Of a stretch of 64,000 nucleotides of DNA, positions 6,126-48,047 are shown piece by piece. Where the stretch lies: assembly GCF_002775205.1 (NCBI RefSeq), contig NC_036456.1, forward strand, positions 16,519,463 to 16,583,462. Reading direction: 5' to 3'. A model generated the notes under the pieces. That model did not search any database. It was not told where the DNA came from and saw nothing but the letters and a program-made list of their open reading frames with translations. The DNA comes from Xiphophorus maculatus. Taxonomy: Eukaryota; Chordata; Actinopteri; Cyprinodontiformes; Poeciliidae. Position 1 is the first letter of the stretch. Every line of letters starts with the position of its first letter. A program made the position numbers and the translations under genes.

Positions 6126-19422
<13,297 letters not shown>

Positions 19423-19700: not shown

Positions 19701-20139
19701 GACTGAACCTCATCATCACTGCACAGAGTACAGTGAAAGATTTGGAAGCGCAACAAGCAGGACTTTATAATTGTCCTCTTTATTCATGCATGACTTGTAG
19801 AGGACCACTTTCGCAATATTTACTAACAAAGGAGGTAATTTTACGGAAAGTAAGGCCATTTTCCTGGTCCTCAGTTTGTTTGTTTTTTTGCATTTCTATT
19901 GTTCTCTGCTAATTAGATTGAGAGAAATTGTTAAGTTTGGTTAAAGTGTAAGGAATAGACTGGGTTAGAAAAAATGTCTGGATTAGGCATAAATTAAGTT
20001 ATTAAAATGAAAGGAAGTCAAAGTCCTCAATCTGCGTAAAACTGCGTGTTTTACGTGTGTGTGTGTTTGTGTGTATTTTCACATTTTTCTATGAAAATGA
20101 AACCAAAGTTGTTGTCGTCGTTGTTGTTCTTCTTCTTTA

Positions 20140-21110: not shown

Positions 21111-21622
21111 TCGATCATTTCCTGACGTTTCTTTCTTACCGCTCGGTTTTGTGACGTCAGTGCCTGTATGGCAGACCCCTAGAACACAAAACTGATAATG
21201 TGATGGAGATGGGCACCAGCATCCCACTTGGGATAAATGTGTAAGATAATGAATGGATGGATTTAAAAAATAAAAATGTCAAAGATGTTTGAGAAAGGCA
21301 TCACTTTGGAATTTGTTGATAGTTGCACGATTAGCCTTTTTTTTTTTTTTTTTTAAAGTGGATTGTGTTTGGCTGAAGAGAATAAATTGAAAATCCTTTG
21401 CAGACTTCTGAAGCACAACGTTTTCATTCTCCACATATCCCATAATGCTGAGCTATTGTGGCTATTTTGTGCAGGACAATGGAAATTGTCAGAGGCAGCA
21501 CACTGGAGCAATCATTAATTAAGATATCTAAAAATGTAATTTTAACTAGTTATGATCATGCTAGTGTCACCCTTCAAATGACAAATCTGGTTATGTCAAA
21601 ATGCATTTTTAGATATCTAGAA

Positions 21623-22818
21623 CAGTGGTTCTTAACATGGGTTCGATTGAACCCCAGGGGTTCGATGAGTCGGTCTCAGGGGTTCAGCGGAGCCTCTGCC
21701 GCGGAGGTAAAGACACACTTGTGTAAAGTAGTGATGACACGCCCCGCTTGTCATCAAGCTGCAGTAAGCCATCACTTACTGCAGAGGATCATGTTACATT
21801 GCTCGGCCAATCAGGGCTACGGGGAATTTAGTGCACGCAGTATCAGCGGCTGTCGTAGTTGTACGTCGCGTGGTTTTTTTCTTAATATTTTAATCCATAC
21901 TAAATATGTCGAGCAAAAAAAGAAGAAAATGAACAGACTTTGCTCTGAAGATGCACTTGCCAAGGTGAAGCCACGCCTCTCTGAAATGGTCTCCCAAAAA
22001 CAAACAGCAGGAGTCACACTGATTTGTAATTTGTGCAAAACTTTATTCTGGCCCCCAAAAGTATTTAGTGGATTCAAAATGACAAAAAAAACCTAATTAA
22101 ATTTAAAATTTAAAAAATTAAGAATTTTTTTTTAATTCTTTGAAAAAAATCCAAATTTATTTTTAATAAGTAAAATAGTAAAAAAAATATTTTGGGAGCT
22201 GAAATTCTTATATGGGGCCGAAATATTTTTTGGGGGGTGTTGAGACGTTTACTCCAGACACGCACCATACATGCACGCACACTCAACGACGGACACAAAG
22301 ATTCTGCACAAAAGCCTTTTGTTTCATACGGACACTTTCTGTAGAAACGAAACTTAACTTTAGCTCATCGTCTGACCACTAGGCAGTGACGTAACACACC
22401 AGCAGACCAGGAGGCGGACTTTAGGATATAAGCAAGGTGTCTTACGTGTTTGAGCAGATGCTGTATAGATTCGGGCCTTTACACTTGACATCCACATAAG
22501 CCTGTAAGGGTAAGCGTCTCTTTCTTTTTAGCGCTAAAAAGAATAAAAAAAAGTAAAGTCTGATTATTCTGTGTTAGCTGATTTCCTGTTCGTGTGCTCA
22601 CACGTTTTGGGTCCGTCGAGTTTAAATCACAACAGGGGCCAGAATAAAGTAATACCGTAACTTCATGCACGACTCATTTTGTTCACCAGCAAAAAAACAT
22701 ATACCTATGTCTTGAATTTGGAAAAAATATATATTTTATTTATCACTAAAGAAGGGTTCGGTGAATGTGCATATGAAACTGATGGGTTCGGTACCTCAAA
22801 AAAGGTTAAGAACCACTG
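21623..22818. mobile_element. Non-autonomous hAT transposon with exact 8-bp target duplication
   Basis: Left end CAGTGGTTCTTAACATGGGT and right end AAGGTTAAGAACCACTG are inverted repeats. Both sides are flanked by ATCTAGAA (21615-21622 and 22819-22826), an exact 8-bp target-site duplication as made by hAT transposases. The 1196-bp body holds only a short open stretch beginning MSSKKRRKMNRLCSEDAL, so no complete transposase is present. The intact duplication suggests a fairly recent insertion. Confidence 0.85.
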
Positions 22819-23499
22819 ATCTAGAATGTAATGGATAGTTAACAAAACCGATTTTATGTTAAAACGGCCTGCCATACTACAAGGAAAGCCGAAGACGCAG
22901 AATCGAAACCGAGAGAGATAATGTGCTGGAAAAAAGGGTAGGGTTAGGGTAAGAGAATCTGCAGGGAGAGGCTGCCAAATGTGTGAAAATTACATATTTT
23001 CACAGAACTGGGCCGTAAAGACTCATTGAAAAAGTTGGATAAGGGTCACACAGGGGCAGAAATTTGGATTTGTGTTGCACTTGCCTGTTGTATGAATATA
23101 GCCATAGAAACTGGGTGTGTTGGTGTTCTGCGTGTCGCTGGAGGCAAACACATTTTTCCCAGACTGTTTGGTCAGCATTGGTAAATTATTCAAAATATTA
23201 AATTATAGTATGACAGACAGCAATATTAGGCTATTTGTGTTATAATATGTGCTTTTTTTATCATTAAATATCATGATTTAACTTCTAGGTTAAATGCTTC
23301 TTATAGTTTCTTGTTTTTGTGTTTAATTGCTATTTTTATTCAGCTTTTATTTCTACTTGAAAAATCGTTGCTCACTTTATCAGTGTTTAGATTTCTTTGT
23401 GTCTCTATTGCGCACATGAAATGTATAACTTTAATTAACTACAACATTGACAGTTTTATAACAGCTGTCTCTTTTCTACAGGTTATCTGGAACAGAAAC

Positions 23500-26400
23500 A
23501 TGGATAATATCCAGCAGGTCCCACAAATGACACATCAAGTGATAAAATGTATTGAAGAGGACGACTTAACAAATCTTAAAAAGTTACTGCGAGAAAACCC
23601 TATAAATGCTCTTTATCCGTATAGTAAACTAAATGATAATGTAACCCCTCTGACTGCTGCTGTTGTAAACCATAACATGCGTTTGTGTAAATACCTTCTA
23701 GAACAAGGTTCAGAACCAAATATTCCCTCGTCAAATATGTGGACACCTTTGCATTATGTCTCACAAGCCAAAGCTCCAATTGGTTTTGTAGAAAAACTTC
23801 TTAAAGCGAAAGCAGATCCAAATGGGTGGAGGCCCGGGGTACTTGTTATGCCTACACCACTACAAATTGCTGCCAGTAAGGAAAGAGACGATGTTGTCGA
23901 AATGCTCCTCTCTGCTAAAGCAATGTCATCGTTGTTACCAATAACAGATCTCGACAGTTTGAAAATCAACAAAAACATAGCTCGAATTGTTCATAAATTA
24001 GGATCTAAAGGAAATGTCTGGTCCAAAATCTATTATGTTGGGATTGCAAAATTACTCTCAAATGTAAGGCGGTTTTATGACAGTCCAACCAAAGCATCAC
24101 CATTAAGAAAAAGAAATCGAGTCAGCAAAAGGTGGAATGAGAAACTTGAAAAACTCGTAAGCATTGATGAAAGCAAAGTGACAAGAATAGGGGGCATTAT
24201 TTATGTAAATAATGAAGAATTTTACATAGCAAAGGGAAGTGATGGAACTGTAGTACTCATAGGACTGAGAGATGATGGCACAGAAGTTGCAATTAAAAAA
24301 ATATCTAAAAGCAACTATAAAACTCTGAAAAATGAGAAAACAATCTATCAAGATCCAAATATATATCATCACTCTATTGTACGATACATTGATTATTTAG
24401 AGGATGAAAATTTTGGATATCTTGCTCTCCAGCTTTATGAGTACACTTTGGAAGAACACATCAGTGCTGGTAGTATTAGTGCCCTCCAGAGAAAGATACT
24501 TGTCTTAGAGCTTCTTGAAAGCTTAAAAGTGCTTCACTGTCAAAATCCTCAGATTCTCCACCGTGATCTAAAGCCACAGAACGTTTTAATCGGTAAGAAC
24601 ATTCAAGATTTTATCTTTGTAATGCTCATGCTGTAGATCAGTTTCTCATATTGACATGATATAACAATGCTGAGTAGTCTGGACTGTTGTTCTTTGTCTA
24701 TATTGGTTATTATTGTTTGTTCCTCATAGTAATAGCGACCAATAAATAGGATAATTCTTTAGGTTTGCAAATAATATAAGCAGATATTTATCAAGTTAGA
24801 AAACTAGTTCTATAGTATACCATACAGACTTTGCACTACATTATCATCTCACTATTCATTTCCTGTAGCTGACCATTATGTCAAAATTCCCTGTAAGAAT
24901 ACTTCTTTATTTTAATCTTCAGAACTGAAATCATAATATATCTTCCACACTACTCCCTTTTCATGATTTGTCCTCCAGATGTTAAGGGGAAATTAAGATT
25001 GGCTGATTTTGGGCTAAGTCGACGCTTACCCAAAGACCAAACAATAGCTGCAGGAACAAAGAGCTGGAAAGCCAGAGAGACTCTAGAGGAGGGGTGCATT
25101 GTGTCATACAAGTCAACCACTGATGTACAGGTGAGTTTTCCTGCAACACCTATTGGTCTATTGACAATGTAAATAAAAATAGTTCTAATGTTTTGTTACC
25201 TTTTAAGGCTGCAGGGATGCTGATGTATTATATCCTGTCTGGAGGAAAACACCCATTCAACGTCAGCAAATCCTTTCAGCTGGAATCAAACATTGATGAA
25301 GGGAAGTACAGTTTGGATGATGTTCAGGATGTTGTGGCAAAAGATCTTATTGAATGGATGATCAACAAAGAACCAACAGACAGACCTAGAGTTGAACAAT
25401 GCCTGAGTCACCCCTTCTTTTGGCCATATGTGAAGTAAGACTACAACACAAATCTATTTATTTATTCTTACACATTCTAAATAAAATTGAGCATATATTC
25501 TGTTTTCACTTTGACTTTCCCTAAATGTAACCTAAATTGTGACATTATGCCATCAGAGCTAGTTTACACGATGAAACACGCTGCTATATTGTTATATTCT
25601 GTACACCTTTGCTCTTTTCTTTTATTCCACATGTTTTAGCACTTAATTAAAGATATTTTCATGTCTCTTTACAGAAAAGTTGAATACCTGAAAAAAGTTG
25701 GTAACAGAAAGGACGTGGCAAAATATCAAAATGCAGACCAGGAACTTATTGACTCGCTTGAAAAATATGCAACTCATGGAGCTTTCTCACAGTGGAAGAA
25801 AAAGGTGAGTGCTGTACAAAAAAATATCTCAATATCTCTAGTTAGTCATAGATATGACTAACTAAGTCTATGATATTTAAGTACTAAACTTGATATGATA
25901 AATATCAACTGCCCTGGGATACCAGCACCTCATTAAATGTGGATATTTTTGCACTATTTCAATGTTGAATGTTGTGATTTGAGAATGTGAAAATTTGTGA
26001 GAAAAGAAATCCATGTGAAGACAGAAAATTTATGCCATTTTTTCTGTTTTTCTTTACTTTCTTTCTTGAGTTTCCACAAGAACTGGTTCAAAAGATGGAT
26101 GGCAAGAAAAAAATCTACCCTAACACCATTCTGGGATTGCTGCGTTTCATACGCAATATGCTTGAGCACTAGTAAGTTAAGCTGATACAAATATTATGTA
26201 GACCTCCCTTTTAGGTGCAAAAACTTATTAAATTACGGTAGTAAAGATCCGCTTTGTCTTTTGTGTTCATTATTTTTTTACATTTGCATGTATGAGTGAC
26301 TTTATGCATCAATGGCTCAGACATTGGTTGATGTTGCATAATAATAGCAGGAGCTGCAACATAAACACAAAAGTTGTTAGAATAAGAACAATATAAACAG

Positions 26401-26687
26401 CTATAAATTGTCATGTAATACAAAACATTAGTGAGATACTCAGTTAAAATTTTCTCCATGTTCACAGTGTTGAAGATGCTTCCAAAATTGTCATCCTTGA
26501 AAAATTTCCTGATCTATTTGGATGTGTCTTCAAGTACGCTAAAGACAAAGGGTGGAATCAACAGATCCCACTGAATGAAATGTTTCAGAATGAAGACTCT
26601 TGCAGCATCTTTGTGATACCATCCCCAAACATCGAGGAGCAGCTGGCGGTTCCAGTTCAGGAGTCTCAACCCAGCAACTTGGATTGA
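23500..26687 (+). CDS. Ankyrin-repeat / protein kinase / KEN endoribonuclease protein, RNase L-IRE1-like
   Basis: Coding exons: 23500-24592, 24979-25130, 25208-25434, 25675-25804, 26071-26171, 26468-26687; phases agree and give 640 aa. Ankyrin-type repeats span about residues 10-145. A basic linker leads to a kinase domain at about 235-490: glycine loop [13 protein letters not shown] (Lys266), HRDLKPQN (Asp356), DFG (374-376), then SHPFFWPYV at its end. A KEN domain follows (about 490-630) with [11 protein letters not shown], in which Arg562 and His567 align with the catalytic Arg and His of RNase L and IRE1. The fold predicts dimerisation-activated RNA cleavage. RNase L (741 aa, nine ankyrins, 2-5A sensor) is the closest layout by family knowledge, but the kinase resembles IRE1 more. 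The APE motif reads ARE. One long first coding exon followed by short ones recalls RNASEL. The ATG sits 18 nt inside an exon with acceptor at 23481, so a non-coding first exon is likely. No signal peptide or membrane segment is seen, so the product is probably cytosolic. Confidence 0.9.
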
Positions 26688-26729: not shown

Positions 26730-26735
26730 AATAAA
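26730..26735 (+). terminator. Polyadenylation signal of the ankyrin-kinase-KEN gene
   Basis: AATAAA lies 43 nt after the TGA stop at 26685-26687. The short 3' UTR fits the compact gene. Confidence 0.6.
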
Positions 26736-28086: not shown

Positions 28087-31000
28087 TCACAAGGTCAGGT
28101 CAATAATGATGTGTTCAAAGATCTGTGTGTTTCCCTTGAAGCTCGATGAAAATATAAAGTCCCTGCGGTCAGTGGAGACCACGGTGAATGAGCGCGGTGC
28201 CTGGATGTACACTTCCTTGAAGCGGTCAAAGATTTTCTTCTCATCATCCCACAGATATATTTGCGAGAACGTATAGTCACTTCCCAGAGCCAGGTAGTGG
28301 CGGTCCTTGAATGTAAATGGCTGCAGGATCATGGAACCTCGGGACGGTACAGCCTGGATCTCTGAAAACTGTTTGGGTCCCCATTTTAGGACCTTGGAGT
28401 CACCAATGTAGCGGGTCATGGAAAGATAGAGCTCCTCTTTGATCCGGAAGTGTTTCACAGCTACCACGTCCTCCATGTTGGGGATATCACCCTGCAGGAT
28501 GAACTTCTGGTTGCTACGGCTCCACTGGTAGATCACTGGAACCTGTGAGCGACTTGCCAAGATTAGGTGAGCCTTCCCATCTAGGTTTAAGAACTCTGCG
28601 TCTGTGTCACGGAACCACTCGTGCAGGGACTGGTATGAGTAAAATCCGTTATCGTTCCACTTGTAGAGGGTTGACAAGCCTGCTTTGGAGCTGTCTGCGA
28701 TGACAAAGAACCAGTCTGTTCCGATCTGAAAAGCCTCGATGTCATTGGGTTTGGAGATCTTGGACACTTCAGTGTCCTGGAACTTGTTGAACCTGCTTTG
28801 GTCATCATCAAACTTGTAAATGTGGGAACCACCAAACAGCTGAGCCACAATGACATAAACCTCTTCCTGGATGATTACTGACTTGCAGCCAACAATGGAC
28901 TGACCTACAGAGGAACACAGGCAAAACACAACATTTAAACTCAACCGAGGCATTTTCTTAAAATGATGGTTTAACTTGCAATATTTGACATGCAGCAGCT
29001 AATTCTGAAAGCGACTCCTTTGTATTAATCTAAGTTTATTTGATCCTTAAGCTGAAGCTAATGGCTTAGCTAAGAGCATTTTCACACATGTAGTTTGTTT
29101 ACTTTAGTTCAAATCAGTTGATGAATTAACTTGTAACTAACTTGTAAAATTCAAAATTAGCTAAAATGGACTTTATGGTTTACAAAGATTACTCTGTGTC
29201 TGCTGCATCCCACAATGCAGCAGAACCTTAAAACTGTTGTCACATTTGCATCAGAAGTCTTTCTTTCTGCTGAAAAGCACAAAAGGATTTGCACTGGAAA
29301 TTGAGATAACTGCACATACCCATCAAATGCAAACTTCAAAGTATCTCATCAGGATCGTACATTGATAGATCAGTACAGAGGATCAGTGCAGTACAGAAAT
29401 ATGGTTTCAACTTTATTCATAAATAAACTTACATTTGTATTCAGCCCTTTTAACCTGATACCCCTGAGAAACTGTGGCAAGGCTCAAATATTGATATTCA
29501 CAGATGCTCTACAGCTGACTGAGCTTGTACTATTTTGGTAGAGACATGCTAAAAAAAACTTTAGAATAAAGATCTTGAAAACCTTGTGTCGTTATTCTTC
29601 TACCAAGTAGTTCTGCATTACATACTTTTGGTCTGTCACATATTACCCCAATAAAACACACAGACGCTTGTGGATGTAATTTGAAAAAAAGTTAAACATA
29701 TGTTGGGATGCAAATATGTTTGGAAAACAACATGGAAAGAGATGCCTCTTCCTGCGCAAAACTTTCTGAAAACAGAACATGCAAAACGTTCTATGTAACT
29801 CTATTTATGCAAAATAAAGATCCATCTACTGCAGGTAAGACATTAACTTCTGATAATGTTTCAACAGAACCCTGCTTTACTAGACACAGGGTGAAGGGAT
29901 TTCCTTACCGGTGATGTTATCATACGTCCTGAAGTTCATCTCAATGTGGTCCCACTGTAAAACCATACAGCTGTCTGAGCTGGGAGCAGCAATAGTCACA
30001 TAGACATCATTCTTGAAGCTGAACGTATCAACTGACAGAGACTCAGAGGCCACGGACTGATGAAGGACAAAATCTGTGGAAAGGTGAAATCATGAGGGGA
30101 ATTTTTTCCTAGAATGACACTGCTGATCCGGCCAACACCAACGTCAGCAGTGAAGCTGACTCAGGCGGCACTCACCCGTTGATATGCACTCATTGTGCAG
30201 GCTGTTCATGTCATTGAGGCGCTTGCCCTTCATGTCGTCCGGTCCGGCACACACGACATCCGACACCGTGGCGTTGGTGCTCTTCAGCCACATCATGAGC
30301 CATTTGGCTCTGCAGTCGCACTCAAAGGCGTTGCCTCGCAAGTCCCTGCAGAGCAGAACCAGTGCAGATGGTTGCAGAAGAAAAGTCCAACAAAGAACAG
30401 CATTTTTACAAACCTGAAGTGAACTTACAGCTCTATCAGTGAGTCCAGGTCAATGAAAACATCCCTGGGTAAGAATTTAATGTTGTTGTTTGCCAGAGAC
30501 CTGAGAAACATCGCCAGTGAGTGAACATGAAGCATATGCAAGAAGAAAATGCAAAAACACAAGAGGTTTTTAATCAACAGTGGGACATACAAGTGAGTCA
30601 AATCCCTGAGTCCTCTGAAGGCATATTTAGATGTAGTCTCCAGCTTGTTGCTCTCAATGAACCTGTGGATTAATCATAAACAAAAATATCAGTTGCAGTG
30701 GTCATGGTTTGAGATTCTTAGACATGCATTTTGTTGAAGTGATAGATGAAAACAAGTATCACCTAGCAACTGTTGGGTGGATGGAAAATGATTCACGATT
30801 TTACATTTTTCTACAAAACAAAAAAATCTGAAAGTCACCACAAATAATATTTTGCATGAAGGTTAAAAGGCTCAGTTTTAGTCTCATCTGGCGTTCTTAA
30901 AAATGTTTTCTGTCTCCTGCATGATTTGTGGCAATCTACAAATCGTCACCCTCCTAAAATAATGGTCTTGTTTTATTCTTTTTTACCAAAATCGCTTTTG

Positions 31001-37660: not shown

Positions 37661-48047
<10,387 letters not shown>

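What the first reader, a model, noticed from the sequence alone, without database searches (positions are those of the whole stretch)
23500..26687. An ankyrin-kinase-KEN ribonuclease gene intermediate between RNase L and IRE1
Seen: one spliced plus-strand gene encodes ankyrins, an apparently intact kinase and a KEN domain with Arg562 and His567. Known: in vertebrates ankyrin-kinase-KEN defines RNase L (antiviral, 2-5A-activated), while IRE1 has a luminal sensor, a membrane segment and the same kinase-KEN pair. Inference: this is a cytosolic RNase with its own ligand-sensing ankyrins, plausibly part of an innate immune or RNA decay response in fish.
Basis: partly seen in the sequence, partly recalled or inferred. 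Interest (0 to 1): 0.75.

Follow-up and report, generated by a model that had tools for sequence, protein, structure and literature searches.

The report
Fish RNase L-type gene, kinase motifs intact
A fish carries a gene built like the human antiviral enzyme RNase L, with most of the same exon boundaries, but with fewer sensing repeats and an apparently working kinase, which may show what RNase L looked like before it came under interferon's 2-5A signal.

Summary
Six GT-AG exons (23500-26687, +) give exactly 640 aa: about four ankyrin repeats, a kinase with intact VAIK/HRD/DFG, and a KEN nuclease with R562, N563, H567. It is an RNASEL-type gene rather than an IRE1 derivative. Human RNASEL (exon table, PMC2048516) and this gene both have six coding exons with phases 1-0-2-0-2. 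Four of five introns fall on the same codon and phase (chance about 2e-9); the fifth is seven codons away. The same fish's ern1 shares none of its eight introns in this region. Of these two families, KEN alone is nearer RNase L and the kinase nearer IRE1. It differs from canonical RNase L in having few ankyrins and intact kinase motifs. No OAS was found in the genome, but that search had no direct positive control. It lies between CCDC149 and an LGI gene. Most likely it is a cytosolic RNase switched on by dimerisation; trigger, expression and immune role are untested. In passing, three other loci carry an RNASEL-type kinase beside a SET domain.

The parts
23482..23499 (+). 5' UTR part of the first coding exon, behind the acceptor-like TTTCTACAG; ATG context AACATGG
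   Evidence: sequence; in-frame but without ATG. The upstream non-coding exon is inferred, with a candidate TATAAG at 22427 and donor at 22510 read by eye
23500..24592 (+). coding exon A: ankyrin repeats (about residues 10-150), linker, kinase N-lobe through [11 protein letters not shown]; ends in phase 1 at D365
   Evidence: intron at the same column and phase as human RNASEL D494
24979..25130 (+). coding exon B: DFG and activation segment; ends in phase 0 at TDVQ|AAG
   Evidence: same column and phase as human RNASEL
25208..25434 (+). coding exon C: kinase C-lobe to HPFFWPYV; ends in phase 2
   Evidence: same column and phase as human RNASEL
25675..25804 (+). coding exon D: start of KEN; ends in phase 0 at WKKK|F
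   Evidence: same column and phase as human RNASEL; matched by the KEN profile, which was built with this protein in it
26071..26171 (+). coding exon E: KEN active-site helix with R562, N563 and H567; ends in phase 2
   Evidence: intron 7 codons from the RNASEL position, same phase
26468..26687 (+). coding exon F: KEN end (FPDL helix) and C-terminal tail, stop codon included
   Evidence: about 13 residues of the KEN loop before FPDL are absent compared with human RNase L
26730..26735 (+). AATAAA polyadenylation signal, 43 bases after the stop

Best explanation
The gene is a fish member of the RNASEL gene lineage. It descends from an ankyrin-kinase-KEN gene that already had RNASEL's intron positions. 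It keeps an intact, probably ATP-binding kinase, whereas human and pig RNase L have decayed motifs, and it has fewer ankyrin repeats (about 4 against 9). Proposed working: the protein waits in the cytosol as an inactive monomer. A ligand or partner bound by the ankyrin domain, together with ATP in the kinase, brings two molecules back to back. The two KEN domains then form the composite metal-independent RNase site (R562, N563, H567) that cuts single-stranded RNA. Shown here: gene model, domain order, catalytic residues, intron homology. Inferred from RNase L and IRE1: dimerisation switch, nuclease activity, cytosolic location. Guessed: the trigger is not OAS-made 2-5A, and the role is stress or antiviral RNA decay.
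For: Gene model and domains. Coding exons 1093/152/227/130/101/220 against human RNASEL 1480/86/206/133/134/187 (Table 5 of PMC2048516): both give phases 1-0-2-0-2. Four of 5 introns lie at identical columns in three MAFFT modes, chance about 2e-9 under uniform placement over 1113 positions, while fish ern1 shares 0 of 8. KEN alone scores best against human RNase L in the PDB (37.5 bits, a chain carrying H672N) over yeast Ire1 (35.6) and the vertebrate IRE1 chains (25.5 at best) (species of the IRE1 chains recalled). IRE1s form their own clade (SH-aLRT 99.9, bootstrap 100) without this protein. Ankyrin residues 51-115 align best to RNASEL repeats 1-2 (score 79; six other registers 33-55; best of 500 shuffles 50). 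No OAS match by PF10421 or human OAS1, both answers warning that an empty result alone shows nothing; the related Mab-21 family gives 5 matches.
Against: The kinase domain is closer to IRE1 (34.0% human, 33.6% yeast, 32.8% fish) than to RNASEL (24.7% human, 29.1% pig), and the whole kinase-KEN scores 154 bits to IRE1 against 95 and 79 to RNase L, though RNase L's decayed kinase would produce this. The pig RNase L KEN (33.2 bits) scores below yeast Ire1. The ankyrin part alone is nearer generic ankyrins and DARPins; RNase L is not among the best 60 of 243 PDB sequences. The fifth intron is 7 codons off. One of 14 rows in the exon table (opossum) does not give the 1-0-2-0-2 series by my arithmetic. 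The locus sits between CCDC149 and LGI, not beside the neighbours recalled for human RNASEL. KEN lacks about 13 loop residues. No transcript was available. The AlphaFold model of exon A was useless (pLDDT 35).
Confidence: 0.74

Rival explanations
1. It is simply this fish's RNase L orthologue, activated by 2-5A, with a shortened but working ankyrin sensor.
For: Same exon structure, the only ankyrin-kinase-KEN gene that the searches found in this genome, and a Trp aligned with W60 of the 2-5A site (W81).
Against: No OAS detected (Mab-21 as an indirect control), which is suggestive only. Of the 2-5A residues named in PMC5927464 (passages: W60, K89, F126, E131, R155, R309, H311) only W60 has a clear counterpart; K89 falls in a gap, and repeats 4 and 9 have no identifiable equivalent.
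Confidence: 0.16
2. It is a fish IRE1 duplicate that lost the luminal and membrane parts and gained ankyrins independently, so the likeness to RNase L is convergent.
For: Kinase identity and total score favour IRE1.
Against: 0 of 8 ern1 introns in the region are shared, while 4 of 5 RNASEL introns are shared exactly; KEN favours human RNase L; human, fish and yeast IRE1 group without it.
Confidence: 0.04
3. It is a decaying or unexpressed copy.
For: APE motif changed to ARE, KEN loop shortened, no transcript data, and no second genome to measure selection.
Against: 640 codons without a stop over six exons with GT-AG sites, intact kinase and KEN catalytic residues, and a polyadenylation signal.
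Confidence: 0.06

Closest known systems
RNase L (RNASEL), 2-5A-dependent ribonuclease of mammals and birds
   Same: Order ankyrin-kinase-KEN; six coding exons with phases 1-0-2-0-2; 4 of 5 introns at the same codon; one long first coding exon holding ankyrins and kinase N-lobe; KEN helix LLxFIRNxxEH
   Different: About 4 instead of 9 ankyrins; kinase motifs intact (human RNase L has HQD and DFD); about 25-30% identity in kinase and KEN; KEN loop about 13 residues shorter; different gene neighbours (human ones recalled); no OAS partner found (inconclusive)
IRE1 (ERN1/ERN2)
   Same: Kinase motifs VAIK/VAVK, HRDLKP and DFG, GTxxW in the activation segment; kinase-KEN pair with R, N, H
   Different: No luminal domain or membrane segment; shorter activation loop (alignment); none of 8 fish ern1 introns shared; ankyrins at the N-terminus
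KEN/HEPN proteins with kinase plus ankyrin repeats (HEPN survey, PMC3710099)
   Same: The survey's table lists KEN fused to kinase 'along with ankyrin repeats, CCCH in some' (passage)
   Different: In the passages read (12 of 27 places) no fish member is described; no word beginning with 'fish' occurs in its main text

Membership tests
RNASEL / RNase L | Ankyrin repeats, kinase-like domain and KEN in that order | tested here: met
RNASEL / RNase L | Coding exons A-F with RNASEL intron positions and phases | tested here: met
   4 of 5 identical, fifth 7 codons off in the same phase (exon table in PMC2048516)
RNASEL / RNase L | Nine ankyrin repeats | tested here: not met
   TPL motifs at 49, 82 and 119 plus an N-terminal cap, about four repeats; nine repeats per PMC2048516 (passage)
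RNASEL / RNase L | Kinase-dead pseudokinase | tested here: not met
   HRD and DFG intact; human HQD and DFD seen
RNASEL / RNase L | 2-5A-binding residues in repeats 2, 4 and 9 | tested here: inconclusive
   W81 aligns with W60, the rest not identifiable
RNASEL / RNase L | OAS enzyme in the same genome | tested here: inconclusive
   PF10421 and human OAS1 find nothing, but no genome known to hold OAS was searched and both answers warn of this; the indirect control Mab-21 gives 5 matches, two of them unusually easy (nearly the whole profile in one open frame)
RNASEL / RNase L | KEN catalytic Arg, Asn, His | tested here: met
   R562, N563, H567, invariant among five sequences
RNASEL / RNase L | 2-5A-dependent RNase activity, interferon induction | not testable with these tools
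   needs protein and expression data; no GAAANNGAAA in the 3 kb upstream of the ATG
IRE1 | Luminal sensor and transmembrane segment | tested here: not met
   Pfam matches over the cut-off are ankyrin, kinase and KEN only; no hydrophobic segment
IRE1 | IRE1 intron positions in kinase-KEN | tested here: not met
   0 of 8 from the fish's own ern1
IRE1 | Intact kinase and KEN | tested here: met
   APE reads ARE

The most novel reading that the evidence does not exclude
Ray-finned fish keep a pre-2-5A form of RNase L: an ankyrin-kinase-KEN RNase with a working kinase, in a genome where no OAS was found, and therefore answering to another trigger. It would show that ankyrin-kinase-KEN fusion came before the loss of kinase activity and, possibly, before the coupling to 2-5A. 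The same RNASEL-type kinase, introns included, was also shuffled onto a SET domain at three other loci of this genome.
Probability: 0.36. Interest if true: 0.7.

Novelty: new variant of a known kind. Interest (0 to 1): 0.52.

Why it matters
RNase L is a main arm of the interferon response in mammals. A 2007 paper reported no RNASEL-like traces in frog, zebrafish or two pufferfishes (PMC2048516, passage). A fish gene with the same exon structure but intact kinase motifs gives a direct way to ask how an IRE1-like stress RNase became a 2-5A-controlled antiviral enzyme, and what sets it off in an animal in which OAS was not found.

Tried and rejected
Structure: the one AlphaFold job (exon A alone, no alignment) gave pLDDT 35, so no fold search was run. 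In each listed row the matched query range ends before the KEN active site (largest query position 532), so they were treated as generic kinases and not studied further. No other fish genome is on hand ('it has no relatives here'), so orthology, synteny in other fish and dN/dS could not be done. Trees have few sequences; the placement of the SET-linked kinases changed between runs (beside this gene at 80.4/71 with one copy; beside IRE1 at 37.6/51 with three) and is left open. Human RNASEL KEN searched against the genome found only one chance-level match (E 9.9) and missed the window gene itself, so that search is too insensitive to exclude a diverged second copy; the PF06479 search also missed the window's own split KEN. 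Interferon-response elements: AANNGAAACT at 22345 is 1 of 10 in the window, 6.8 expected. GAAANNGAAA is commoner in the window than in shuffles (16 against 7.7 expected, 0 of 100 shuffles reach 16; with a following C, 4 against 1.3), but none of these sites lies within 3 kb upstream of the ATG; the nearest are at 20093 and, inside coding exon A, at 24107. Literature: searches gave no listed paper that I could identify as describing a fish RNASEL; listings only, apart from the eleven papers whose passages or sections I read. 'rnasel3' in two zebrafish papers is an RNase A-type gene in one and only a gene label in the other; 'RNASelect' in a trout paper is a dye.

Full report
OBSERVATION. Splice sites GT..AG, an open frame of 640 codons, R562 and H567, and AATAAA at 26730 were found. 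Pfam finds ankyrin repeats, a protein kinase and Ribonuc_2-5A in that order. The kinase has G246xxG, K266, E279, HRD 354-356, N361 and DFG from D374; APE is changed to ARE; no hydrophobic segment long enough to cross a membrane exists. In the window, ankyrin-kinase-KEN queries match this locus and no second copy; the hits elsewhere in the window had E-values of 0.49, 0.51 and 0.60. Length, domain scores and catalytic residues put chance out of the question.

SURROUNDINGS. On the minus strand lie CCDC149 (PF09789 at 14181-14516 and 16684-17019), an LGI gene (EPTP, 28090-28998) and SEPSECS (39247-39684); these are 4 of the 10 open frames scanned, the other 6 gave no Pfam match. From memory this order matches human 4p15.2, whereas human RNASEL lies at 1q25.

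WHICH FAMILY. By overall score the kinase-KEN part is nearest IRE1 (154 bits, against 95 for pig and 79 for human RNase L), and the kinase is 34% identical to human IRE1 against 25-29% to RNase L. KEN alone is nearest human RNase L (37.5 bits; yeast Ire1 35.6; pig RNase L 33.2; vertebrate IRE1 25.5 at best). Scores therefore do not decide, because RNase L has decayed its kinase. Gene structure does. Table 5 of PMC2048516 (section read) lists RNASEL coding exons for 14 species; the human row is 1480, 86, 206, 133, 134, 187. This gene has 1093, 152, 227, 130, 101, 220. Both series give phases 1, 0, 2, 0, 2, as do 13 of the 14 rows by my arithmetic (the opossum row departs from intron D on). On three MAFFT alignments introns A to D fall on the same column and phase as in human; E is seven codons away in the same phase, next to a stretch where this protein lacks about 13 KEN residues. 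Under uniform placement over 1113 shared positions, four or more exact hits of five have probability 2.0e-9. As control I modelled the kinase-KEN exons of this fish's own ern1 (C16): eight introns, none shared. Both genes also begin with a long coding exon that holds the ankyrins and the kinase N-lobe, behind a likely (here) or known (RNASEL) 5' non-coding exon.

TREES. With human and pig RNASEL, human, fish and yeast IRE1 and this protein, the IRE1s form one clade (SH-aLRT 99.9, bootstrap 100) and this protein and RNASEL stay outside. With six sequences and long branches this only says that the gene is not nested in IRE1; it cannot say whether it is the orthologue or an old sister of RNASEL.

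SENSOR. The ankyrin part has TPL motifs at 49, 82 and 119. Residues 51-115 align best with RNASEL repeats 1-2 (score 79; six other registers 33-55; best of 500 shuffles 50), placing W81 opposite W60. However, RNase L is not among the best 60 of 243 PDB sequences matched by the ankyrin part, so this likeness is not specific. The residues of 2-5A binding named in PMC5927464 (passages) outside repeat 2 have no identifiable counterpart. In the genome, OAS1_C (PF10421) and human OAS1 match nothing. Both answers warn that an empty result without a genome known to hold the family shows nothing, and the 14 control genomes gave no match either. As an indirect control I searched the Mab-21 family, whose member cGAS is described as closely related to OAS (PMC8204762, passages; that cGAS falls in the Mab-21 family is recalled): five places match, but two of them are easy ones, with nearly the whole profile in one open frame. 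So OAS was not found; its absence is likely to me but not shown.

OTHER COPIES. The protein search of the genome gave 50 matches at E<=0.001, with 69 of 161 candidates scored: 6 are the exons of this gene; 3 (C9, C7, C8) are RNASEL-type kinases; 1 (C16:13626095) lies in the fetched ern1 locus; the other 40 were not examined one by one and look like ordinary kinases from the matched range. The three kinases (32-35% identical to this gene's kinase) have introns A (phase 1) and B (phase 0) at exactly the columns of RNASEL and this gene, 3 of 3 loci, each behind SET exons and before a 630-aa frame on the same strand (SET by Pfam at C9). No KEN was found in the three 9.9-kb stretches, while the same profile, which was built with this protein in it, matched the window's three KEN exons. 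The KEN family search of the genome gave 3 matches at two loci, C16 and C5, both IRE1-like; it missed the window's own split KEN. So 'only ankyrin-kinase-KEN gene in the genome' is what was found, not proven.

MECHANISM. From RNase L and IRE1 (established knowledge; passages of PMC4061530) the KEN nuclease works as a dimer whose formation needs nucleotide in the kinase pocket and a sensor that gathers monomers. The kinase and KEN residues for that are present here. I therefore commit to a dimerisation-switched cytosolic RNase; activity, location and trigger are inference.

PRINT. PMC2048516 states that no RNASEL-like traces were detected in Xenopus tropicalis, Danio, Takifugu or Tetraodon (passage). 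PMC3710099 (passages) lists KEN with kinase and ankyrin repeats as a known architecture. PMC6307210 (passages) reports no RNaseL in four sponges and eight other lower animals. Ten literature searches listed no paper that I could identify as describing a fish RNASEL; the library holds open-licence papers only, and database annotations could not be consulted.

VERDICT. It is a new variant of a known kind: an RNASEL-lineage gene with IRE1-like kinase motifs and a short sensor.

Noticed in passing
L119, L120, L121 (own genome C9:30834000-30843900, C7:4886500-4896400, C8:26533000-26542900): At 3 of 3 loci SET-domain exons (Pfam PF00856 4.2e-15 for the C9 copy; the others by tblastn) are followed on the same strand by kinase exons 32-35% identical to the window gene's kinase, with introns A (phase 1) and B (phase 0) at the columns of RNASEL and no KEN found in the 9.9 kb. 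C7 and C8 have HGN in place of HRD; the C9 intron A has a GC donor. Possibly a SET-kinase fusion family.
   Followed up: partly
L119, L120, L121, downstream of the kinase exons: A 630-aa open frame, 97-98% identical between the C9 copy and the other two, with zinc-finger-like Cys/His pairs and a C-terminal part that reads like a tyrosine recombinase (by eye); no Pfam match. The SET-kinase exons may travel with a Crypton-like element.
   Followed up: partly
window 21640-22810: Repeat-like stretch with the frame 21452-22096 (..MNRLCSEDALAKVKPRLSEM..), read by eye as a hAT/ZBED-type mobile remnant upstream of the gene; no Pfam match.
   Followed up: no
own genome C16:13618500-13628400 (L087) and C5:32319800-32329700 (L088): Two IRE1-type genes in the fish, with similar exon edges in the parts read; only the C16 one was modelled.
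   Followed up: partly
window 22427-22509: TATAAG followed about 80 bases later by a donor-like GTAAGG/GTAAGC, a candidate promoter and 5' non-coding exon of the gene; read by eye.
   Followed up: no
whole window: GAAANNGAAA (interferon-response-like core) occurs 16 times against 7.7 expected from shuffles, none within 3 kb upstream of this gene's ATG.
   Followed up: no
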